64,000 nt of DNA from assembly GCA_025998875.1 (NCBI GenBank), contig AP024675.1, forward strand, positions 885,589 through 949,588, given 5' to 3'. Shown here one piece after another: positions 550 to 37,986 of the stretch. The number at the start of each line of letters is the position of its first letter. Within the stretch, counting starts at the first letter, position 1. Origin of the DNA: Bacteroidota bacterium (GTDB lineage Bacteria; Bacteroidota; Rhodothermia; JANXDC01). Under the pieces are notes generated by a model, which searched no databases, was not told the DNA's origin, and saw only the letters and a program-made list of their open reading frames with translations. The position numbers and the translations under genes are program-made.

Positions 550-1737
550 ATGCAACCCGATGTCTTCGATACACCGGGCAAGCCCGACGCATCGACCGTG
601 GTGCGTATCGAACTGCGGAACGAAGACCTTCTGGAGGCCCTGGGGGTACTGGCCCCCGCTGTACCCTCCCGCTCCACGATCCCCATCCTGGAGTGTGTGC
701 TGCTGGAGTCGGATGGATCCCAGCTCGTGCTCTCCGCCACGGATCTGGAAATCTTTGTCACCCGCACGTTGCCCATCGAAACCGAGCCGTTCCGTCTGGC
801 CGTCCCCGCCCGTCGGCTCCTGGAAACCCTGCGGGCGATCGACGAGGAGATGCTCCTTGTGCAGGTAGATCCCGACGCGGTCGAGCTGCGCACCTCGCGG
901 GGTCGATACCGCATCGCCGCCCGAGGGCAGGAGGAGTTCCCCTCTCGACCCGACCTGGAAGGAGGGGTAGAACTCGAGTCGGAAACCGAGCCCCTGGCCC
1001 GGGCTATGGAAACCGTGCTCTTTGCCGCCAGCCGAGATGACCTGCGGCCCGCACTGAACGGGGTGCTCTGGGAGGTGCATCCCGAAGAGGTGCGCCTGGT
1101 GGCCACCGATAGTCACCGGCTCGTCCGGCTGGTATCCTCCGGCCTGATCCGCAACCCGCAAGGCGCCACCCTGCAGGCCATTATCCCGGAACGCGCCATG
1201 GGGTTACTGGAGAAAATGCTGCGACGTTCGGACTCGGATACAGACACCTGTCGCATCCGGCTTGGCGCCAGTCAGGCCTCCTTCCAGTGGAGCGGAACGC
1301 TCTTCACCACGCGCCTGATTCAGGAATCCTATCCCAACTATGAGGCGGTTATTCCGGTGGAATGGCAGCGCCGGGTGCGATTCGATCGGGAGGCCTTCCT
1401 CCGGGCGCTCAAGCGCGTCTCCCTCTATGCGAGCACGCAGGCCCACCAGGTGCGCCTGCATCTAGAACCCCAATGGATACGCCTGGAGGCGGAAGACATC
1501 GATCGCTCCAGCTCTGCCGAAGAGCGTCTGCCGGCCGAACTGGAGGGCGACCCCCTGGTGATCGGGTTCAACGCCCGATACCTGCAGGAGGCCCTGCAGC
1601 ATCTGGAAAGCCCCGTGGTCGTGATGGAGTGCACCCACGCCAACCGGGCCGCCGTCCTGAAACCTCAGCAAACAGAAGGCCCTCAGGAGGAGGAGGTGCT
1701 CATGCTCGTAATGCCGGTCATGCTCAGCGGCTACTAG
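550..1737 (+). CDS. dnaN: DNA polymerase III beta subunit (sliding clamp)
   Basis: This is the ring-shaped clamp that tethers the replicative polymerase to DNA. The 395 residues fit the three-domain beta-clamp fold, and the first domain carries the conserved stretch LAPAVPSRSTIPIL. The N-terminus is about 15 residues longer than in most homologues, but ATG 550 has a good ribosome site (AAAGAGGGGG) and sits 15 bases after dnaA, so it is preferred. The last residues (VMPVML) match the usual C-terminus. The stop codon overlaps the stop of the convergent htrA-like gene by two bases, leaving no room for a separate terminator. Confidence 0.97.
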   Translation: MQPDVFDTPGKPDASTVVRIELRNEDLLEALGVLAPAVPSRSTIPILECVLLESDGSQLVLSATDLEIFVTRTLPIETEPFRLAVPARRLLETLRAIDEEMLLVQVDPDAVELRTSRGRYRIAARGQEEFPSRPDLEGGVELESETEPLARAMETVLFAASRDDLRPALNGVLWEVHPEEVRLVATDSHRLVRLVSSGLIRNPQGATLQAIIPERAMGLLEKMLRRSDSDTDTCRIRLGASQASFQWSGTLFTTRLIQESYPNYEAVIPVEWQRRVRFDREAFLRALKRVSLYASTQAHQVRLHLEPQWIRLEAEDIDRSSSAEERLPAELEGDPLVIGFNARYLQEALQHLESPVVVMECTHANRAAVLKPQQTEGPQEEEVLMLVMPVMLSGY

Positions 1738-15849: not shown

Positions 15850-16512
15850 TCATTCCCCCGAGACACATGCGGGCCTTGGGGAAAGATGGAGCAAAAACTT
15901 CCCCTCCATCTCCGCAACGGGCCAAAACTCCATAATAGACTCCGCACGCACGCGCACCCCAGAAAGCCCCCCAACTTCCCGCACCCAGTCGTCCCCCTTG
16001 AGCACAATCAACCCCCCTTCCCACCGATCCGGGCAAGGAGCCGGAGCATCCCGAAGCAGAGGACCAACCCACCTCCAGAGCTGGCCCAGGGGGGCCACAG
16101 CCCGACTTACCGCGTGCGTAAAACGCTCACGAAGCCTCTCCACACGGCCATGACGCACTTCCACATTCTCCAACCCAAGCCGATAGACCATGGCCCGCAC
16201 GGCGGCCACTTTTTTGGCCACGGCGTCCACCAGCACAAAACGTACCTCTGGAAAAGCGATCGCCAGCGGAATCCCCGGCAACCCCCCTCCCGTGCCCACA
16301 TCCAGCACCCAATCCCCCACCCCGAATTTCCGCCGCGCAATCACCAGGCTATGAAGAAGATGGCGCTCCCAGATCCGGTCCTCATCGCGCCGGGAAAGGA
16401 GGTTAAGGCGTCGGTTCCAGAAGCGCAACAACTCCTCGTAGCGCCGCAGGAGCTCCCACTGCTCCTGGCTCAGACTCAGATGTGCCACCCAAGAATGTTC
16501 CACGTGAAACAT
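15850..16512 (-). CDS. rsmG: 16S rRNA (guanine527-N7)-methyltransferase RsmG (GidB)
   Basis: Methylates G527 in the streptomycin-sensitive region of 16S rRNA. The 220 residues contain the SAM-binding motif VLDVGTGGGLPGIPLAI (about 69-85) and VDAVAKKVAAVR. The N-terminus is MFHVEH, the well-known start shared by RsmG proteins whose first codons are a parS site. The start codon immediately follows the mnmG stop (TGAATG), giving the classical mnmG-rsmG pair found near bacterial origins. Confidence 0.97.
   Translation of the reverse strand: MFHVEHSWVAHLSLSQEQWELLRRYEELLRFWNRRLNLLSRRDEDRIWERHLLHSLVIARRKFGVGDWVLDVGTGGGLPGIPLAIAFPEVRFVLVDAVAKKVAAVRAMVYRLGLENVEVRHGRVERLRERFTHAVSRAVAPLGQLWRWVGPLLRDAPAPCPDRWEGGLIVLKGDDWVREVGGLSGVRVRAESIMEFWPVAEMEGKFLLHLSPRPACVSGE
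16496..16511. other. parS centromere-like site
   Basis: TGTTCCACGTGAAACA is a one-base variant of the ParB-binding consensus TGTTTCACGTGAAACA. It lies in the first codons of rsmG (ATG TTT CAC GTG GAA CAT) and is 11 kb from the predicted oriC. ParB loaded here with ParA would segregate the origin region. The parA and parB genes are not in the window. Confidence 0.85.
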
Positions 16513-18375
16513 TCACCGGCCCAGGTACACCAACAGCACGGAAATATCTGCCGGGCTCACCCCGCTGATGCGAGAGGCCTGCCCGATCGACCGAGGACGG
16601 ATGCGCTTGAGCTTTTCCCGCGCCTCGGCCGAGAGGGCCGGAAGCCGATCGAAATCGAAATCCGGGGGAATGCGCACATCCTCCAACCGGCGCATCTTCT
16701 CGGCCAACTCCCGCTCCTTTTCGATGTATCCGGCGTACTTGAGCTCGATCTCCACCTCCTCGAGCACCTCCCGGGGGGTTTCGGCTATCGCCCGCTCCAG
16801 ACCGTCGACGACCCCGATCAGATCCCCCAGCGCCACCTCCGGACGGGCCAGAAGCGCCCGAAGGGGAATCGGTTGCCGAATCGGCGAAGAACCCCTCCCC
16901 TCCAACCAGGAGTTCACCTCTTCTGGACGTACGCGGGTCGCCTCCAGGATGCGGGTCAGACGCTCAATAGCCCGCCGCTTCTCCTCAAACCGACCCCATC
17001 GCACCCCATCGACCAGTCCGATCTGCCGTCCGATCGGGGTCAGCCGCAGATCCGCATTATCCTGACGCAGGAGCGTGCGAAACTCGGCCCGAGAGGTGAA
17101 CATGCGATATGGTTCATCGGTGCCTTTGTTGACCAGATCGTCGATGAGCACCCCGATGTAGGCCTGATCCCGGCGCAGAATCAGGGGATCAAGCCCCTGA
17201 ACGCGACGGGCCGCATTGATCCCCGCCATAAGCCCCTGCGCGGCCGCCTCTTCGTAGCCCGTCGTGCCGTTGATCTGCCCGGCGAAGAAGAGCCCCTCTA
17301 TGCGCTTTGTCTCCAGGCTGGGAGCCAGTTGATGCGGAGGAAAGTAGTCATACTCGATGGCATAACCCGGCCGCAACAGGATCGCCTCTTCCAGGCCGGG
17401 AATCAGCCGCAGGGCGCGAAGCTGAACCTCCTCCGGCAGGCTGGTGGAAAACCCATTGAGATACATCTCCGTCGTTTCCCAGCCCTCCGGCTCCAGAAAG
17501 AGCTGATGCCGCTCCCGATCCGCGAAGCGCTCGATCTTGTCCTCAATGGAGGGACAGTACCGAGGGCCCCTGCCCTGAATGCGGCCCGCAAAGAGCGGAG
17601 AACGATCGAAGCCCTCGCGCAGCACCTCGTGCACCTCGGGCGAGGTATACGTGATCCAACAGGAAAGCTGCCGCTCGATCAGCACCCGATCATGAAGAAA
17701 GGAGAAAGGACGGGGATCGGGATCTCCTGGTTGTTCTTGCATGCGCCCGAAATTCACGGTGCGCCCATCGATACGGGGTGGGGTACCTGTCTTGAAGCGA
17801 CCCGCCTCGAACCCCAGCCGGACCAGGCACTCCGTCAGCCCGGTGGATGCCGGCTCCCCGGCCCGGCCACCCCGGAGCTGCCGCTCGCCGATGTGGAGCA
17901 CGCCATTGAGGAACGTGCCCGTGGTGAGCACCACGGCGCGGGCGCGGAACTCGGCGCCGGTCAGGGTGCGCACCCCCTCTACCCTATCCCCGCTGATGAG
18001 GAGCTCCAGCACCGTATCCTGACGAAAGTGCAATCCCGGAATGCGCTCGAGCTCCTTTCTGGCCTCCCAAGCATACCGCATCCGATCGCACTGGGCGCGG
18101 GGAGACCACATAGCTGGCCCCTTGGAGCGATTGAGCATCCGATACTGAACCGCCGCCCGGTCCGTGATAAGCCCCATCACCCCGCCCAGCGCGTCGATCT
18201 CCCGAACAATCTGTCCCTTGGCGATCCCCCCGATGGCCGGATTGCAGGACATCTGCCCGATGGTCTGCAGATTCATCGTGATCAGGAGCGTGCGCATGCC
18301 CATCCGGGCTGAAGCGGCGGCGGCCTCCACGCCCGCATGTCCTCCACCCACCACGATCACGTCGTAGAAACCCAT
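16513..18375 (-). CDS. mnmG: tRNA uridine-5-carboxymethylaminomethyl modification enzyme MnmG (GidA)
   Basis: FAD enzyme that with MnmE builds the cmnm5 group on wobble U34. ATG 18375 starts the standard N-terminus [19 protein letters not shown] with the FAD GxGxxG motif; the total is 620 residues, the usual size. Other signatures: [22 protein letters not shown] near residues 48-69, the [10 protein letters not shown] motif and the C-terminal helical MnmE/tRNA-binding domain ending in a GVSPADI segment. rsmG follows without a gap. An 808-codon open frame on the opposite strand is only a shadow. Confidence 0.98.
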
Positions 18376-18436
18376 AATCCCGATCCCCGATTCCGCTGAC
18401 CCATGTACGTACACGTCTGGTAAAAGATCCCACCCC

Positions 18437-18468
18437 TTGCGAAAGGCCGCATTTCCACCATAACTTAT
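18437..18468 (+). promoter_or_regulatory. Possible promoter of tRNA-Gln
   Basis: TTG (18437-18439), 21 bases and TAACTTAT (18461-18468, six of eight positions against TAnnTTTG counting the free ones), ending nine bases before the tRNA. Its position is right, the match is moderate. Confidence 0.35.
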
Positions 18469-18477
18469 GCCGTCCAC

Positions 18478-18550
18478 TGCCCGGTAGCTCAACTGGCAGA
18501 GCACCTGACTCTGGATCAGGGGGTTAGAGGTTCGAATCCTCTCCGGGCAG
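18478..18550 (+). tRNA. tRNA-Gln(CUG)
   Basis: Acceptor stem TGCCCGG/CCGGGCA, D-arm GCTCAACTGGCAGAGC, anticodon CTG in the loop of CCTGACTCTGGATCAGG, T-loop GTTCGAATC and discriminator G. CCA is not encoded (CCG follows). Decodes CAG. Confidence 0.96.
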
Positions 18551-24081: not shown

Positions 24082-24219
24082 TGTGGATGTGGATAACCTC
24101 GGAGCAGGCTCCCTTCACATGGCACAAGCCTTGACATCCGGCTTTCGCGAGGCAGTAGGGCCGAATGAGCCCGGAGGCCAAGCGTCCCACCCCCGGATCG
24201 ATCCGGAAAACTATGCACA
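24082..24219. promoter_or_regulatory. DnaA-box group upstream of nrdJa
   Basis: The 371-base gap between 23981 and 24351 holds a perfect minus-strand DnaA box (TGTGGATAA at 24088-24096, reverse of TTATCCACA), an overlapping relative (TGTGGATGT, 24082-24090) and CTATGCACA (24211-24219, one mismatch to TTATNCACA). DnaA could regulate the reductase genes, as known for nrdAB in E. coli, or this could be a secondary part of the origin. Apart from this and the hairpin at 24009 I see only short palindromes (CGGATCGATCCG near 24194) in the gap. Confidence 0.55.
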
Positions 24220-24351: not shown

Positions 24352-26862
24352 ATGATCGAACGCATGTTCGCCCACCGGGGCAAAACGGCGCAGCGAATCG
24401 GTCCGAAGCGTGTACGCGCCTACGCGGAACTGCACGCATACCTCAGCCGCCGCGTGCAGCGAGGAGATCTGCCCAGCCATCCGGATTATCTGGGGGGAAA
24501 CGAACTGGCCACAAACATCTACGAGCGGAAGTACTATCTCAAAGACCTCGAAGGGCATCTGCTGGAGCGTCGCCCGGAAGATGTATTCATCCGCCTGGCT
24601 GCCTTCATGGCCACCCTGGAACCCACAAAGAGCAAACAGCGCCGGTGGGCTGAGGCCTTTTACCGGTTGCTCTACGAGGGTCGTTTTATCCCGGGAGGGC
24701 GGGTGATCGCGGGCGCGGGGGATCTATATCGCCTCAAGACGTTGGCCAACTGCTTCGTCACCCAGATCGCCGATGACTCCATCGAGTCCATCTATCAGGC
24801 CGCCTACGAATGCGCCCGTACGTACTCCTTTGGCGGGGGCATCGGTGTAGACATTTCGCCTCTGCGGCCCAAAGACTCCGTCGTGCACAACGCGGCGGAT
24901 CGCTCCACCGGAGCCGTATCGTTTATGGATCTTTTCTCCCTCACGACCGGATTGATCGGGCAATCGGGTCGCCGCGGAGCGCTCATGATCACCATCGACG
25001 TCAAACATCCCGACGTGCTCGATTTTATCCGGGTCAAGAAGATCCCCAACTGGGTCACGCGCCAGATTGTCGAGCAATGCCAGTGGACGGGCCTTTTTAC
25101 GGAGCGCCAACTGCGGGAAATCGAGCGCCAGGTTATGGAAAACACCCAGGTACGCTTTGCCAATATCAGCATCAAGGTAAGCGACGAGTTCATGCAGGCC
25201 GTCGAGGAGCAGACCCGCTACGGCCCGCACAAAGTATTGCTCTACCGCAAATACTCCCGTCCCACCGTTCGAGAAGCCTATCAGGGTCCGGGGCGGCACT
25301 ATGCCCATGGCATTCCCTCGAAGGATATCCGGCAGTACGAGCTCTGGGAGGTATTCGAAAGCCTGGAGGCCCTGAACCGCTTCCTGGCTCAGGAGGGGCT
25401 GCCCGGCCTGGGGGAGGAGGCGCTGGCCGATCCGTTCCGGCGCGACGTATTTGGTGACTACGTGCTCGAGCTACCGGATCGCTCCTATGACCTGGCGATC
25501 CGTTACGCGGGGGACTTTCTGCTCTACTTCGGCTCCGAACCCACGGGGGAAATCCGGCGTCTGATCAAGGCCCGCCAGATCTGGGATGCCTTCGTGGAGG
25601 GCAACTACCGGACGGCCGAGCCCGGCCTGATCTTCTGGTCCACCATGGCCCGCTACAGCCCATCGAATTATGTGGGCCGCCCCATCTCGTGCACCAATCC
25701 GTGTGCAGAGGTGCCCCTTGAAGACGGGGGCGCCTGCAATCTGGGCTCGCTGAACCTGAGCCGTTTTGTGCGCAATGGCTATCGACCGGAAGCGGAAATC
25801 GAATGGGACCGGCTCTGGGAGGCCACTCAGGAGGCGGTGCGCTTTCTGGATAACGTGGTCAGCTGGAACGAACTCCTCAACCCCCTGGAGAAGCAACGCC
25901 GGGCCGCTTCCGAAACACGCCGGCTCGGGCTGGGTGTGATGGGCATCGCCGACATGCTCAATCAACTGGGGCTGGCCTACGACAGCCCGGTGGCCCTGGA
26001 GCTCCTGGAACAGATCATGGCCCATATAGCCAATGCGGCCTACCAGGCCTCTGCGCATCTGGCGGCAGAAAAGGGGGCCTCCCCGATCTTCGATTTCCAG
26101 CTCTACAGCCAGTGCCCCTTCTTTGAGGAGGCGCTTTGGCCTGAAACCCGCGAGCTCATACGCCAGCATGGACTCCGCAACATCGCCCTGCTCTCCATCG
26201 CCCCTACGGGAACGATTTCCAATATCGTACTGGGCTTTGAGCACGAAGGCCGCCATTACATCGGAGTCTCCGGAGGCGTGGAACCTATCTTCGCCCTCTA
26301 CTATACCCGGCGTTCGGAGTCCTTCGGAAACCGGTTCTTCCGGATCTTCCACAGCACAGTACAGGCTTATCTGGACATGCACGGGCTTTCGGAAAAAGCC
26401 CAGGAAGGAGACCTGAGCGAGCTTCTTCCGGAGCACTTCCTCCGCACCGCACACCACATCGATCCGGCCATGCGGGTTCGCGTACAGGCCATCTGCCAGA
26501 AATACGTGGATCATTCTATCTCCTCGACGGTGAACCTGCCGGAGGATATCGAGCCCGAGGTGATTTCCTCCATTTACCTGGAGGCCTGGAAGCAGGGACT
26601 GAAAGGCATCACGGTTTATCGAGACGGAAGCCGATATCCGATCCTGAGTGTGGATGGGAAAAAGACGCGCTTTCAGGAGCTCAAAGACCGGCGATTCCGC
26701 ATCCATCTGGCAGATGGATCTATGATCGAGGCCACAGGCGACGAGGTTATCCGTCTGCCCAATGGACGCCTGAGCACGGTGTACCATCTCTTGCTGGAGC
26801 TGGAACACGGACAGAGCCAGGAAACCGAACCGCTGGTAAGGGTACCGGTTCATCAGAACTGA
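24352..26862 (+). CDS. nrdJa: Class II (adenosylcobalamin-dependent) ribonucleotide reductase, catalytic part
   Basis: Reduces ribonucleotides to deoxyribonucleotides using a cobalamin-generated thiyl radical, without oxygen. The 836 residues show the reductase barrel: first redox Cys134 (TLANCFVTQ), radical-site Asn449, Cys451 and Glu453 (NPCAE), second redox Cys462 (GGACNLGS) and the phosphate-binding APTGTISN segment, whose PTGTIS form points to class II. No C-terminal tyrosine pair of class I is seen and no nrdB is present. The cysteine-rich C-terminal part that usually ends class II enzymes is missing and is supplied by the next gene. Position beside oriC fits replication supply. Confidence 0.92.
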   Translation: MIERMFAHRGKTAQRIGPKRVRAYAELHAYLSRRVQRGDLPSHPDYLGGNELATNIYERKYYLKDLEGHLLERRPEDVFIRLAAFMATLEPTKSKQRRWAEAFYRLLYEGRFIPGGRVIAGAGDLYRLKTLANCFVTQIADDSIESIYQAAYECARTYSFGGGIGVDISPLRPKDSVVHNAADRSTGAVSFMDLFSLTTGLIGQSGRRGALMITIDVKHPDVLDFIRVKKIPNWVTRQIVEQCQWTGLFTERQLREIERQVMENTQVRFANISIKVSDEFMQAVEEQTRYGPHKVLLYRKYSRPTVREAYQGPGRHYAHGIPSKDIRQYELWEVFESLEALNRFLAQEGLPGLGEEALADPFRRDVFGDYVLELPDRSYDLAIRYAGDFLLYFGSEPTGEIRRLIKARQIWDAFVEGNYRTAEPGLIFWSTMARYSPSNYVGRPISCTNPCAEVPLEDGGACNLGSLNLSRFVRNGYRPEAEIEWDRLWEATQEAVRFLDNVVSWNELLNPLEKQRRAASETRRLGLGVMGIADMLNQLGLAYDSPVALELLEQIMAHIANAAYQASAHLAAEKGASPIFDFQLYSQCPFFEEALWPETRELIRQHGLRNIALLSIAPTGTISNIVLGFEHEGRHYIGVSGGVEPIFALYYTRRSESFGNRFFRIFHSTVQAYLDMHGLSEKAQEGDLSELLPEHFLRTAHHIDPAMRVRVQAICQKYVDHSISSTVNLPEDIEPEVISSIYLEAWKQGLKGITVYRDGSRYPILSVDGKKTRFQELKDRRFRIHLADGSMIEATGDEVIRLPNGRLSTVYHLLLELEHGQSQETEPLVRVPVHQN

Positions 26863-26882: not shown

Positions 26883-27491
26883 ATGATTGAGCTCTCCAGT
26901 ATTCCGGTCGCCATTGAAGAGGTAAAGGTCGAAAAACCGATTCCAAGCGCCTCCATGGACGCCGAATCTGGCGTGATCGTCACCCGGCCGGACGTGGTCG
27001 ATGCCAAGGTCTATAAACTCCGGAGCGGATTCGTCAAACATAGCGTCTACATCACGCTGGGTTATATCGAAGAGAACGGACGCAAGCGGCCCATTGAGAT
27101 CTTCATCAACTCCAAGGACCTTACGCGCGCTGCCGAATACGCCGTGCTTACCCGGCTTATTTCGGCCATTTTCCGCAAATCCACGGATGCCACCTTCATC
27201 CTCGAAGAACTCAAGGGGATCTACGATCCCAACGGGGGCTACTTCAAAAACGGGCGCTACATACACTCCTTCTACGCGGAAGTGGCCGAAATCATTGAGC
27301 GCTTCTTCCAGGATATCGGGTGCATGCCTTCAGCCGGCCAAACACCCGGAGCCAGCGCCCGGGAAGCCGAAGCCAATGCACCGACAGAGCTGAAGATCTG
27401 CCCGGAATGCGGCCGCCGAAGCGTGAAAATCGAAAACGGATGCCTGGTCTGCATCGATCCAGAGTGCGGCTACTCAAAGTGCGACCACTAA
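26883..27491 (+). CDS. nrdJb: Class II ribonucleotide reductase C-terminal subunit (NrdJb-like)
   Basis: A 202-residue protein matching the part missing from the preceding enzyme. Residues about 42-145 (VYKLRSGFVKHSVYITLGY, KRPIEIFINSKDL, ISAIFRK) form the TSCPD-like domain found at the end of full-length class II reductases, and the C-terminus (CPECG ... CLVCIDPECGYSKC) is the cysteine tail that re-reduces the active site. Pseudomonas aeruginosa is known to have an NrdJa/NrdJb split of this kind. ATG 26883 follows AGAGGAGG, 20 bases after nrdJa. The predicted oriC begins right after the stop. Confidence 0.88.
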   Translation: MIELSSIPVAIEEVKVEKPIPSASMDAESGVIVTRPDVVDAKVYKLRSGFVKHSVYITLGYIEENGRKRPIEIFINSKDLTRAAEYAVLTRLISAIFRKSTDATFILEELKGIYDPNGGYFKNGRYIHSFYAEVAEIIERFFQDIGCMPSAGQTPGASAREAEANAPTELKICPECGRRSVKIENGCLVCIDPECGYSKCDH

Positions 27492-27945
27492 GCCTCTAAT
27501 CTATCCACCCCATTTTACTCACATATTATACACAATGTGCACAACAGGCCCTACAGGGCCTGTTGTGCACACTTAAAGGGGTCGTGTCTTCTTTAAGTTG
27601 TGGACAAAAGCGGGAAAAGACGGGGGAAGAGCGGGGGGTAAATGAGGAAAACCCTTTCCCCGCTATAATCGCCAGAGCACATAACCACATCGACCTAAAC
27701 TTTTTCATATCTACCCCACCACTCTTCCACAGGCTTCCAGGTGTGAATATCTACCCTACGGGTTCAAACAAGTGTCCTGTGAATAAGTGGAAAACCCTTC
27801 CCAGGGCCTTTTTAAGCGCCAGAAAGCTATTTTTAGAATGTCCACTTTGTGGAATACATTGTGGAAAGCCTGTGTATGCGATGTGTACAAAAAAGTTTTC
27901 CCCTTATCCACATCCTCTATTACTACGACTACAGGGATTATGAAC
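27492..27945. other. Predicted chromosomal replication origin (oriC)
   Basis: A 454-base gene-free stretch that is clearly richer in A+T than the rest. It has exact TTATNCACA boxes at 27526-27534 (TTATACACA), 27778-27786 (reverse, TTATTCACA) and 27904-27912 (TTATCCACA), and one-mismatch boxes at 27563-27571, 27599-27607, 27742-27750 and 27882-27890. Weaker ones lie at 27848 and 27860. Runs such as CTTTTTTAAG-like and TATTTTTAGAATG (around 27808-27840) could be the unwinding element. By eye, base composition switches from C-rich to G-rich plus strand here. parS, dnaA-dnaN, mnmG-rsmG and rpmH-rnpA all lie within 28 kb. Confidence 0.8.
27536..27571. repeat. Perfect 16-bp inverted repeat at the edge of oriC
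   Basis: TGTGCACAACAGGCCC and its exact complement flank a 4-base loop (TACA). The outer parts of both arms (TGTGCACAA, TTGTGCACA) are one-mismatch DnaA boxes, and an exact box (TTATACACA) ends two bases before the repeat. There is no T-run, so it is not an ordinary terminator, though it lies 44 bases after the nrdJb stop. Confidence 0.9.
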
Positions 27946-28215
27946 TCATCGAATAGAAAAACCAACGACGTGTGGTATGGGAGACACAGGAGTGGTCTGA
28001 ATCCGTTCCACGCGAGCCATAGGAGGACCCTCTCTACACCAGGAAAGCATTTGCTCTACAGCCTCCGGCTCTCCTATCAGAAGCAGGCTCACAGACCCGT
28101 CGGGCTCGTTGCGTACCCATCCAGAAAGACCCAAGGAGTGTGCTCGTTTCAGAGCCCCGTATCGGAATCCCACCCCTTGGACACGTCCGAATATGCGTAC
28201 TTGAACGGCTTTCAT
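27946..28215 (-). CDS. acyP: Acylphosphatase
   Basis: Small enzyme (89 residues) that hydrolyses acyl phosphates. The signature is complete: VQVRIFGRVQGVGFRYGAL (residues about 4-22; the Arg of GVGFR binds phosphate) and LSGWVRNEPDGSV (catalytic Asn near 41). ATG 28215 overlaps the stop of the alkA-like gene by four bases, so the two are translationally coupled. Its stop codon borders the predicted origin. Confidence 0.94.
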   Translation of the reverse strand: MKAVQVRIFGRVQGVGFRYGALKRAHSLGLSGWVRNEPDGSVSLLLIGEPEAVEQMLSWCREGPPMARVERIQTTPVSPIPHVVGFSIR

Positions 28216-28829
28216 AGGCTCGGATCTCCGTCTACGCTCTTCCACAGATACCACGTAGCTATGGTTTCGTACGGTGCCCAGGGACGGGCAAGCGCATGGA
28301 GCATTTTTTCGGAGGGACGTTCCGCCAGTCCGTACTGTATCTGGACGGCTCGTTTCAATCCCAGGTCCTGAACCGGAAGGATGCGGGGATGCAGGTAAGC
28401 GAAGATGAGCACCATCTCCGCGGTCCACCGACCAACGCCAGGCAGAGCGGTGAGGTGGTGAAAAACCGTCTCCATAGGCGCCGAAGCAAGGGCTTCTAGG
28501 GACAGTCGGCCCGAACAGACCGCCTGGGCTGCACATCGAAGGGTCTGGATCTTATTTCGGGACAACCCCGCCTGGCGGAGCATCGACTCCGGGCTCCGAA
28601 GAATGGATTCTGGTTCGAGCGCGCTCCCCCCGATCAGGAAAAGAAGCTTTCGATACAGGCTCTGCGCGGCCCGCAGGGAGATTTGCTGTCCGATAATGGC
28701 ACGGCAGAGCACGTCAAAAGGGGGCCCAATGGGCTTGAGGGAACAGGGGCCCAGGGCCTCAATGAGCGCTCCCAGTACGGGATCGCATCGGCTTAGGTGT
28801 TCCTCCGCCTCCTTCCAGTTGGGCTGCAT
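28212..28829 (-). CDS. DNA-3-methyladenine glycosylase II (AlkA-type, HhH-GPD family)
   Basis: Base-excision repair enzyme that removes alkylated purines. The 205 residues have CRAIIGQQISLRAAQSLYRKL (about 46-66), the helix-hairpin-helix LTALPGVGRWTAEMVL (about 127-142) and the catalytic Asp in PVQDLGL (about 154-160). It lacks the N-terminal beta domain of E. coli AlkA, like many compact homologues. First gene of a two-gene unit with acylphosphatase. Confidence 0.9.
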   Translation of the reverse strand: MQPNWKEAEEHLSRCDPVLGALIEALGPCSLKPIGPPFDVLCRAIIGQQISLRAAQSLYRKLLFLIGGSALEPESILRSPESMLRQAGLSRNKIQTLRCAAQAVCSGRLSLEALASAPMETVFHHLTALPGVGRWTAEMVLIFAYLHPRILPVQDLGLKRAVQIQYGLAERPSEKMLHALARPWAPYETIATWYLWKSVDGDPSL

Positions 28830-31145: not shown

Positions 31146-32370
31146 TCTTCCCTGGCGGTTCGCCAAGCAGAATAAGGTGGCCGAGCCGATCGCGCTTGGC
31201 CTCCAGATAGCGCCGGTTATGCTGATTAGGAGGGATTTCTATGGGTACGCGCTCGACGATTTCCAGCCCGTATCCCTCGATGCCGATACGTTTGACGGGG
31301 TTATTGGTGATCAGGCGCATTTTGCGCACCCCCAGGGCGCAGAGGATCTGGCAGCCGATGCCATAGTCCCGGTTATCGGCCCGGAAGCCGAGGGCCTCGT
31401 TGGCTTCGACCGTATCGAGGCCTTGTTCCTGGAGCTTATAGGCGCGCAGTTTGTTGATGAGGCCGATTCCCCGGCCCTCCTGTTTCATGTACAGGAGCAC
31501 GCCCTTTCCGGCGCGTTCGATCATCTGCAGGGCGGCCTCAAGCTGGTCGCCGCAGTCGCAGCGCAGGGAGTGGAAGATATCTCCTGTGACGCACTGGGAG
31601 TGCACGCGCACGAGCACGGGCTCTTCGGGGTTCCAGGTCCCCTTCGTGAGGGCCAGGTGTTCCTCTCCGGTAAGGATATCCCGAAAGGCCGTCAGCTCGA
31701 ACTCCCCCCACCGGGTCGGCAGGTGTACGGAGATCACCCGTTCTACCAGGGATTCCGTACGCAGGCGATAGGCGATGAGATCTTTGATGGTGATGAGCTT
31801 CAGCCCGAAACGCTGGGCCACCCGGTACAGATCCGGCACCCGGGCCATGGTGCCGTCTTCGTTCATGATCTCCACCAGCACACCGGCCGGATAGAGGCCG
31901 GCCAGCCGGGCCAGGTCCACGGCGGCCTCCGTATGGCCGGCTCTGCGCAAAACCCCCCCATCAGCCGCGCGCAGAGGGAATATATGTCCGGGTCGGGCGA
32001 AGTGTTCGGGTACTTCTCTCGGATCGGCCAGCGCGCGCACCGTTCGAGCCCGATCCGCGGCCGAGATGCCCGTGGTCGTGCCGATCGTATAGTCAACGGA
32101 AACGGTAAAAGGGGTTCCATGCAGAGAGGTGTTATCCCGAACCATGGGCTCCAGCTTGAGTTCTTCCGCTCTCTGGCGGGTGATGGCCACGCAGATAAGC
32201 CCCCGTCCATGTGTGGCCATGAAGTTGATCATTTCGGGTGTGCAAAGCTCAGCTGCCCCGATGAAATCTCCCTCATTTTCGCGGTCCTCATCGTCGACCA
32301 CGATCACGAGCTTGCCCTGGCGCAGATCTTCCAGGGCCTCCGGGATCGTATTGAAACGAATGGGTTCCAT
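31135..32370 (-). CDS. ribBA: Bifunctional 3,4-dihydroxy-2-butanone-4-phosphate synthase / GTP cyclohydrolase II
   Basis: Supplies both precursors of riboflavin: the N-terminal RibB domain makes the four-carbon unit from ribulose 5-phosphate and the C-terminal RibA domain opens GTP. 411 residues. Rib[19 protein letters not shown] near residues 20-37 and [13 protein letters not shown]. RibA: zinc ligands in [17 protein letters not shown] and the catalytic [11 protein letters not shown] segment. No FMN riboswitch could be seen upstream. It forms a minus-strand run yajC-ribBA-tldD. Confidence 0.97.
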
Positions 32371-37435: not shown

Positions 37436-37591
37436 ATGAAGCGGACCTATCAACCCAGCCGGATTCGACGTCGGCGCACCCACGGATTTCGTGCCCGTAT
37501 GGCCACCAAGCAGGGGCGGGCGGTGTTGGCGCGCCGGCGGGCAAAAGGGCGTCATAAGCTTACCGTCAGTGATGAGCCCCGGTACAAATGA
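37436..37591 (+). CDS. rpmH: 50S ribosomal protein L34
   Basis: bL34, 51 residues, highly basic: [20 protein letters not shown] then [22 protein letters not shown], the standard L34 sequence, plus a seven-residue acidic-tyrosine tail. Ribosome site GAAGGGA. Its stop overlaps the rnpA start (ATGATG) by four bases. rpmH-rnpA next to the origin is one of the most conserved arrangements in bacteria. Confidence 0.98.
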
Positions 37592-37986
37592 TGGCCGCTG
37601 GAGGCCGGCTGCGGGCCCGGTTTCCCCGGGCAGAACGGTTGCGTCGTCGCAAGCTCATCGCCCGTGTCTTCTCCGAAGGTCAGTCCTGGGCCTCCGGGCC
37701 GATCCGTGTGGTGGCTGCTCTCCTGGATAGGCAGGAAGCGCCCCTGCAGGTTGCCTTTGCGGTAAGCCGGAAGGTGGGCTCAGCCGTGCTACGCAACCGC
37801 ATTCGGCGCCGCATGCGCGAGGTGTATCGTATTCACAAGGCCCCCCTTCTGGAGACATTTCGGCAGCGTTCCCATACACTGGCCCTAGTGTTTATCTTCC
37901 GCGGGACGGCCTCGGTCTCCTTTGCGGAGCTAGAAGGGGCCATGCGGTCCTTGATAGAAACCCTGCAAGCCCATTATGGTACGTAA
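37588..37986 (+). CDS. rnpA: Ribonuclease P protein component
   Basis: Protein subunit that helps RNase P RNA bind tRNA precursors. The 132 residues hold the RNR motif region [22 protein letters not shown] (split [14 protein letters not shown] / RIRRRMRE, about 63-84). The start ATG 37588 overlaps rpmH; the following codon is also ATG. It overlaps yidD by 11 bases. The RNA partner (rnpB) was not found. Confidence 0.96.

What the first reader, a model, noticed from the sequence alone, without database searches (positions are those of the whole stretch)
27492..27945. Predicted oriC between nrdJb and acyP, 27 kb away from dnaA-dnaN
This 454-base gap has three exact TTATNCACA boxes, at least four one-mismatch boxes and AT-rich runs in an otherwise GC-rich, tightly packed region. 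In many bacteria oriC touches dnaA, dnaN, rpmH or mnmG; here it borders a ribonucleotide reductase and an acylphosphatase, with those landmark genes scattered on both sides.
Basis: partly seen in the sequence, partly recalled or inferred. Interest (0 to 1): 0.75.

Follow-up and report, generated by a model that had tools for sequence, protein, structure and literature searches.

The report
Chromosome replication origin beside nrdJ, acyP
The gap between a ribonucleotide reductase gene and an acylphosphatase gene is almost certainly where this bacterium starts copying its chromosome; it is built from ordinary origin parts and is only mildly unusual in lying 28 kb from the initiator gene dnaA.

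Summary
The finding holds. The 454-bp gap 27492-27945 has 3 exact and 6 one-mismatch TTATNCACA boxes. Shuffles of the same sequence average 0.025 exact and 0.54 in all. It is the densest cluster in 864 kb examined. In the complete 2.355-Mb chromosome the GC-skew minimum falls at 28254. The skew changes sign there at third codon positions of genes on both strands, so gene orientation does not explain it. The opposite switch lies at 2.12-2.16 Mb, about half a chromosome away. The only parS-like site in the genome is at 16496, 11 kb away. The right edge holds a Bacillus-type unwinding element: TTATCCACA, a 4-nt spacer, then CTATTACTACGACTA (DnaA-trios). Similar box-trio elements lie in box clusters in other families of the class; in one complete relative the element is 0.2 kb from its skew minimum. 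The same-genus genome keeps nrdJb-gap-acyP-alkA and the 28-kb distance to dnaA. Other families have the origin in other neighbourhoods, also away from dnaA. The dnaA leader has its own smaller box cluster but no skew switch or trios. This is a correctly predicted, conventional DnaA-dependent oriC separated from dnaA: a new member of a known kind. No marker-frequency data could be run.

The parts
27492..27945 (.). oriC: box-rich, AT-rich intergenic region
   Evidence: 9 DnaA boxes with at most one mismatch, skew minimum at 28254, conserved gap in the same genus
27515..27523 (+). DnaA box, 1 mismatch, TTACTCACA
27526..27534 (+). DnaA box, exact, TTATACACA; aligned exact box TTATCCACA in same-genus G001
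27536..27571 (.). Inverted repeat TGTGCACAACAGGCCCTACAGGGCCTGTTGTGCACA carrying one-mismatch boxes 27536-27544 (-) and 27563-27571 (+); may double as nrdJb terminator
   Evidence: self-match of 94%; boxes; not conserved in G001, which has a different hairpin there
27599..27607 (-). DnaA box, 1 mismatch, TTGTCCACA
27742..27750 (-). DnaA box, 1 mismatch, ATATTCACA
27778..27786 (-). DnaA box, exact, TTATTCACA
27821..27920 (.). Lowest-GC 100 bp of the window (37% GC)
27882..27890 (-). DnaA box, 1 mismatch, TTGTACACA
27896..27903 (+). Degenerate upstream half of a tandem box pair (TTTTCCCC, where relatives have TTATCCAC)
   Evidence: sequence comparison with L138, L140, L258, L259
27904..27912 (+). 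DnaA box, exact, TTATCCACA, anchor of the unwinding element
27917..27931 (+). DnaA-trio tract CTA TTA CTA CGA CTA after a 4-nt spacer (TCCT); trios read 3'-GAT-5' on the other strand
   Evidence: homologous elements; rule from PMC8287927
28254..28254 (.). Cumulative GC-skew and keto-skew minimum
16496..16511 (.). parS-like site TGTTCCACGTGAAACA, the only match with up to 2 mismatches in the genome
1..534 (+). 3' end of dnaA (gene starts before the window)
550..1737 (+). dnaN
   Evidence: TIGR00663
15850..18504 (-). rsmG (15850-16512) and mnmG (16513-18504)
24088..24096 (-). Exact DnaA box TTATCCACA upstream of nrdJ; same place and orientation in G001
24352..26862 (+). nrdJ, B12-dependent ribonucleotide reductase
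   Evidence: TIGR02504
26883..27491 (+). nrdJb, C-terminal part of the class II reductase
   Evidence: 80% identical 100-bp end in G001
27946..28536 (-). ORF ending in the acylphosphatase gene acyP (domain at residues 103-196)
28212..28829 (-). AlkA/HhH-GPD DNA glycosylase
37436..37600 (+). rpmH (ribosomal protein L34), approximate extent

Best explanation
The nrdJb-acyP gap is the single chromosomal origin, oriC. DnaA binds the exact and near-exact boxes on both strands across ~400 bp and forms an oligomer. The right-hand element (degenerate TTTTCCCC, then TTATCCACA, spacer TCCT, then CTATTACTACGACTA) guides ATP-DnaA onto the trio strand and opens the duplex there. The single encoded DciA-type protein then probably helps load the replicative helicase. 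Two forks leave in opposite directions and meet about half a chromosome away, at 2.12-2.16 Mb. A parS-like site 11 kb to the left marks the region for ParB-based segregation. Shown here: boxes, skew switch, parS, box-trio conservation and conserved gene context. Inferred: DnaA binding, opening at the trios, helicase loading.
For: Box density far above chance. Genome-wide skew switch with the fine minimum at 28254, present at third codon positions of + and - genes on both sides. Opposite switch between 2.12 and 2.16 Mb, near the antipode (~2.09 Mb). Unique parS-like site 11 kb away. Same-genus G001: nrdJb, box-rich gap, acyP, alkA, with dnaA 28.4 kb off. Homologous box-trio elements in box clusters of 5-12 boxes in other genera. 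In complete G016 the element at 955.6 kb sits in the densest box cluster and 0.2 kb from the local skew minimum 955882. In G014 and G016 parS is 16-26 kb from this element, not near dnaA 370-390 kb away. The trio tract CTANTACTA occurs once in the window. DnaA has the canonical DHSTVIHA motif. One DciA gene is present.
Against: The skew minimum is shallow between 24 and 29 kb, so skew alone places the origin only to within 2-3 kb. The trio element is not clearly kept in G001: the aligned box is TTTTCCACG and the following tract is degenerate. The bare box-trio pattern is no commoner in the class than its reversed control (8 against 7 matches); only its coincidence with box clusters is informative. 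The sequence right of the trios is only ~60% AT and runs into acyP. No experimental data.
Confidence: 0.94

Rival explanations
1. The true origin is the dnaA leader (G000:884381-884650), and the nrdJ-acyP boxes are a DnaA-titration or regulatory cluster.
For: The leader holds the second densest cluster sampled: 6 boxes, two of them exact. Boxes upstream of dnaA are widespread in the class.
Against: The skew keeps falling for 28 kb to the right of dnaA, and third-position skew in window 1-27491 is -0.094 for genes of both strands, the left-replichore sign. No box-trio element is found in the leader by the published rule. In complete relatives G003 and G016 the skew switch is also away from dnaA, at a box cluster.
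Confidence: 0.03
2. Two origins: oriC at nrdJ-acyP plus a weak or dormant second origin in the dnaA leader (a split or ancestral bipartite origin).
For: Conserved box clusters at both places in G000, G001 and G003.
Against: Only one skew switch is seen. Autoregulation of dnaA explains the leader boxes equally well; it is known for E. coli dnaA (PMC8203912).
Confidence: 0.05
3. The skew minimum here is a product of a recent inversion or of gene orientation, and the boxes regulate nrdJ.
For: Genes next to the gap point towards it on both sides. DnaA regulates reductase genes in E. coli (PMC8203912), and an exact box lies upstream of nrdJ.
Against: The skew sign change holds for third codon positions of both strands and over the whole chromosome. 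The cluster is downstream of nrdJb, not at its promoter. The context is conserved in the genus, and parS is close by.
Confidence: 0.01

Closest known systems
Bacillus subtilis oriC basal unwinding system (DnaA box pair + DnaA-trios; PMC8287927)
   Same: Order box - short spacer - CTA/TTA repeats on the same strand; single anchoring box TTATCCACA with a 4-nt spacer, within the published search rule
   Different: The upstream tandem box is degenerate (TTTTCCCC); the element is at the edge of an nrdJb-acyP gap, not next to dnaA/dnaN; the same-genus relative has only a degenerate form
Escherichia coli oriC (between mnmG/gidA and mioC)
   Same: Single origin distant from dnaA, with boxes on both strands (from general knowledge)
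   Different: Different neighbours; here mnmG lies 9-12 kb from the origin; GATC/SeqA and IHF sites were not examined
Origins far from dnaA, e.g. Synechococcus lividus PCC 6715 as noted in DoriC 10 (PMC6323995)
   Same: Box cluster away from dnaA and dnaN
   Different: Different phylum and box consensus (TTTTCCACA there)
Origins of other families of the same class found here (G003 uspA-pgi; G014 and G016 dtd-dinB)
   Same: Box cluster at the skew switch, separate from dnaA, with a second smaller cluster upstream of dnaA; G014 and G016 share the box-trio core
   Different: Each family has different neighbours and a different distance to dnaA (31 kb in G003, about 350-410 kb in G016 and G014)

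Membership tests
DnaA-dependent bacterial oriC | Cluster of DnaA boxes well above chance in an intergenic region | tested here: met
   3 exact and 9 in all, against shuffle means 0.025 and 0.54
DnaA-dependent bacterial oriC | Located at the replichore skew switch | tested here: met
   Minimum at 28254; genome-wide sign pattern; codon-position-3 control
DnaA-dependent bacterial oriC | AT-rich DNA unwinding region next to boxes | tested here: met
   Gap 55% AT; the window's lowest-GC 100 bp at 27821-27920
DnaA-dependent bacterial oriC | Initiator DnaA encoded, with box-binding motif | tested here: met
   Single dnaA, canonical DHSTVIHA motif
DnaA-dependent bacterial oriC | Replication initiates there in cells | not testable with these tools
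   No read-coverage data available
Basal unwinding system (DnaA box + DnaA-trios) | Box with at most 2 mismatches, spacer of at most 16 nt, at least 3 trios with conserved middle base | tested here: met
   TTATCCACA|tcct|CTATTACTA, top-scoring in the gap; 0 of 5000 shuffles have a comparable element
Basal unwinding system (DnaA box + DnaA-trios) | Element conserved in relatives' origins | tested here: inconclusive
   Present in box clusters of other genera but degenerate in same-genus G001 and not found in G003
Basal unwinding system (DnaA box + DnaA-trios) | ATP-DnaA opens the duplex at the trios | not testable with these tools
   Needs purified protein
dnaA-adjacent oriC (typical arrangement) | oriC touches dnaA or dnaN | tested here: not met
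   28.4 kb from the dnaA leader; the skew switch is not at dnaA

The most novel reading that the evidence does not exclude
Within one bacterial class the origin has repeatedly changed gene neighbourhood (nrdJb-acyP, uspA-pgi, dtd-dinB) while a ~40-bp box-trio core and a nearby parS stay together and dnaA keeps its own box cluster. Such a core would act as a relocatable origin module, with the dnaA leader perhaps the relic of a former origin.
Probability: 0.2. Interest if true: 0.5.

Novelty: new member of a known kind. Interest (0 to 1): 0.3.

Why it matters
It gives a well-supported origin coordinate for a poorly sampled lineage (two genomes of this genus in the set searched, none else from its family), so the chromosome can be rotated correctly and growth rate can be estimated from read coverage. 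The comparison also suggests a class-wide rule: look for the box-trio core and parS, not for dnaA. The close similarity of a 43-bp core between families with different origin neighbours makes origin relocation open to study.

Tried and rejected
The whole gap as a DNA query found only the nrdJb end in G001 and the core in G014. The idea that nrdJb marks origins more widely failed: in 27 nrdJb loci, mostly from Calditrichota, Ignavibacteriae and related groups, no box cluster follows the gene (0-3 one-mismatch boxes, none exact). The box-trio pattern alone is not enriched over its reversed control; two of eight and one of four hits lie outside box clusters (L139, L141, L260) and were discarded. 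For G009 no origin could be placed: the skew switches near 2.49 Mb without a box cluster, while parS and dnaA are at 2.28-2.32 Mb. A first guess for the G016 origin (3337 kb box pair) was wrong; its skew switch is at 956 kb. The literature search found no paper on origins of this group.

Full report
WHAT WAS CLAIMED. A 454-bp gap between nrdJb and acyP was predicted to be oriC, 27 kb from dnaA-dnaN.

THE OBSERVATION. The gap is exactly 27492-27945. It has three exact TTATNCACA boxes and six more with one mismatch, on both strands. In 2000 dinucleotide-preserving shuffles of the gap the mean was 0.025 exact boxes (max 2) and 0.54 with up to one mismatch (max 4). The genome of 2,354,932 bp in one contig has 23 exact boxes. 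Among the window and 800 kb of sampled genome this is the densest 460-bp cluster; the second is the dnaA leader (6 boxes, two exact). The gap is 55% AT, and the lowest-GC 100 bp of the window lie in it. An inverted repeat at 27536-27571 carries a one-mismatch box in each arm; it is not conserved in the same-genus genome.

THE SKEW TEST. GC skew is negative in all 19 samples from 2.16 Mb through zero to 0.89 Mb, and positive in 20 of 21 from 0.95 to 2.12 Mb. In the window both the GC and the keto cumulative minimum fall at 28254, 0.3 kb from the gap; the curve is flat over 24-29 kb, so the precision is 2-3 kb. As a control for gene orientation, third-codon-position skew expressed on the + strand was computed for + and - ORFs separately. 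Left of the gap it is -0.094/-0.094 in the window and -0.080/-0.041 in the genome samples; right of it +0.063/+0.086 and +0.043/+0.067. The sign changes for both strands, so the switch is a replication signature. The opposite switch, 2.12-2.16 Mb, is close to the antipode (~2.09 Mb). The 27 kb between dnaA and the gap have the left-replichore sign, which rules against an origin at dnaA.

INDEPENDENT LANDMARKS. The only parS-like site in the genome with up to two mismatches is TGTTCCACGTGAAACA at window 16496-16511, at the mnmG/rsmG junction. In G014 and G016 the parS sites are 16 and 26 kb from the box-trio element and about 390 and 370 kb from dnaA, so there parS follows the origin, not dnaA.

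THE CORE. At the right edge, 27896-27931 reads TTTTCCCC-TTATCCACA-TCCT-CTATTACTACGACTA. By the published rule (box with at most 2 mismatches, spacer up to 16 nt, at least three trios; PMC8287927) this is the best element in the gap. The match to G014, in another family, is 88% over 43 bp although nothing else in the gap aligns. In G014 the sequence is TTATCCAC-TTATCCACA-CGCT-CTATTACTACTACTA, between dtd and a dinB-family gene. Pattern searches over 146 genomes of the class gave 8 and 4 hits. The reversed control patterns gave similar numbers, so the pattern alone proves nothing; but 6 of the 8 and 3 of the 4 lie in clusters of 5-12 boxes, while the other three lie outside such clusters. In complete genome G016 the element is at 955.6 kb, in the densest box cluster of the switch region, 0.2 kb from the local skew minimum 955882 and 346 kb from dnaA. 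In G003, another family, the skew switch (31161 in the stretches sampled) and a cluster of nine boxes (31328-31830) lie 31 kb from dnaA, between uspA and pgi; no trio element was found there.

THE CLOSEST RELATIVE. G001 (same genus) has nrdJb, a box-rich gap, acyP and an alkA-like gene in the same order, with dnaA 28.4 kb away and the parS-like site between them. The gap is about 60% identical in alignment (310 of 519 columns, nrdJb and acyP edges included) and keeps an exact box aligned to 27526, but its trio tract is degenerate. So the position is conserved in the genus while the sequence drifts.

MECHANISM. Shown: boxes, skew switch, parS, context, DnaA with a canonical box-binding motif, one DciA gene. 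Inferred: DnaA fills the boxes, is guided by 27904-27912 onto the trios, opens the duplex around 27917-27970, and DciA helps load the helicase.

RIVALS. An origin at the dnaA leader is contradicted by the skew. The leader boxes are more simply dnaA autoregulation, since boxes upstream of dnaA are widespread in the class. A dormant second origin cannot be excluded.

NOVELTY. An oriC away from dnaA is established knowledge (PMC6323995, PMC10225481). The neighbours nrdJb and acyP are specific to this genus among the genomes examined, and nrdJb loci of other phyla show no box cluster. This is a new, well-supported member of a known kind. The most interesting by-product is the apparent relocation of a conserved box-trio core between gene neighbourhoods within one class.

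Noticed in passing
window 24088-24096 (nrdJ starts 24352); G001:C15:108696-108704: An exact DnaA box lies ~260 bp upstream of nrdJ, and at a matching place and orientation in the same-genus genome. DnaA control of reductase genes is known for E. coli nrdAB (PMC8203912); here it would be a class II enzyme.
   Followed up: partly
G000:884381-884650, just upstream of the window: The dnaA leader has six boxes (two exact TTATCCACA, at 884450 and 884638). Pairs of exact boxes upstream of dnaA, often ~99 bp apart, recur across many genomes of the class.
   Followed up: partly
window 27946-28536: The ORF called acyP is 196 aa, but the acylphosphatase domain covers only residues ~103-196, so the true start is probably internal.
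   Followed up: no
G000:1080001-1100000: One 20-kb stretch of the right replichore has the opposite GC skew and higher GC (0.656), possibly an inversion or acquired island.
   Followed up: no
G000:1795647-1795919: The only ParB-domain gene found lies ~0.88 Mb from the parS-like site and oriC, not beside mnmG-rsmG.
   Followed up: no
G009:C1:2284006-2494744: In this complete relative parS and dnaA are at 2.28-2.32 Mb, but the skew switches near 2.49 Mb with no box cluster there; its origin is unresolved.
   Followed up: partly
window 26883-27491: The closest nrdJb relatives in the collection (up to 66% identity) are from Ignavibacteriae and Calditrichota, which may point to horizontal transfer of this reductase.
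   Followed up: no
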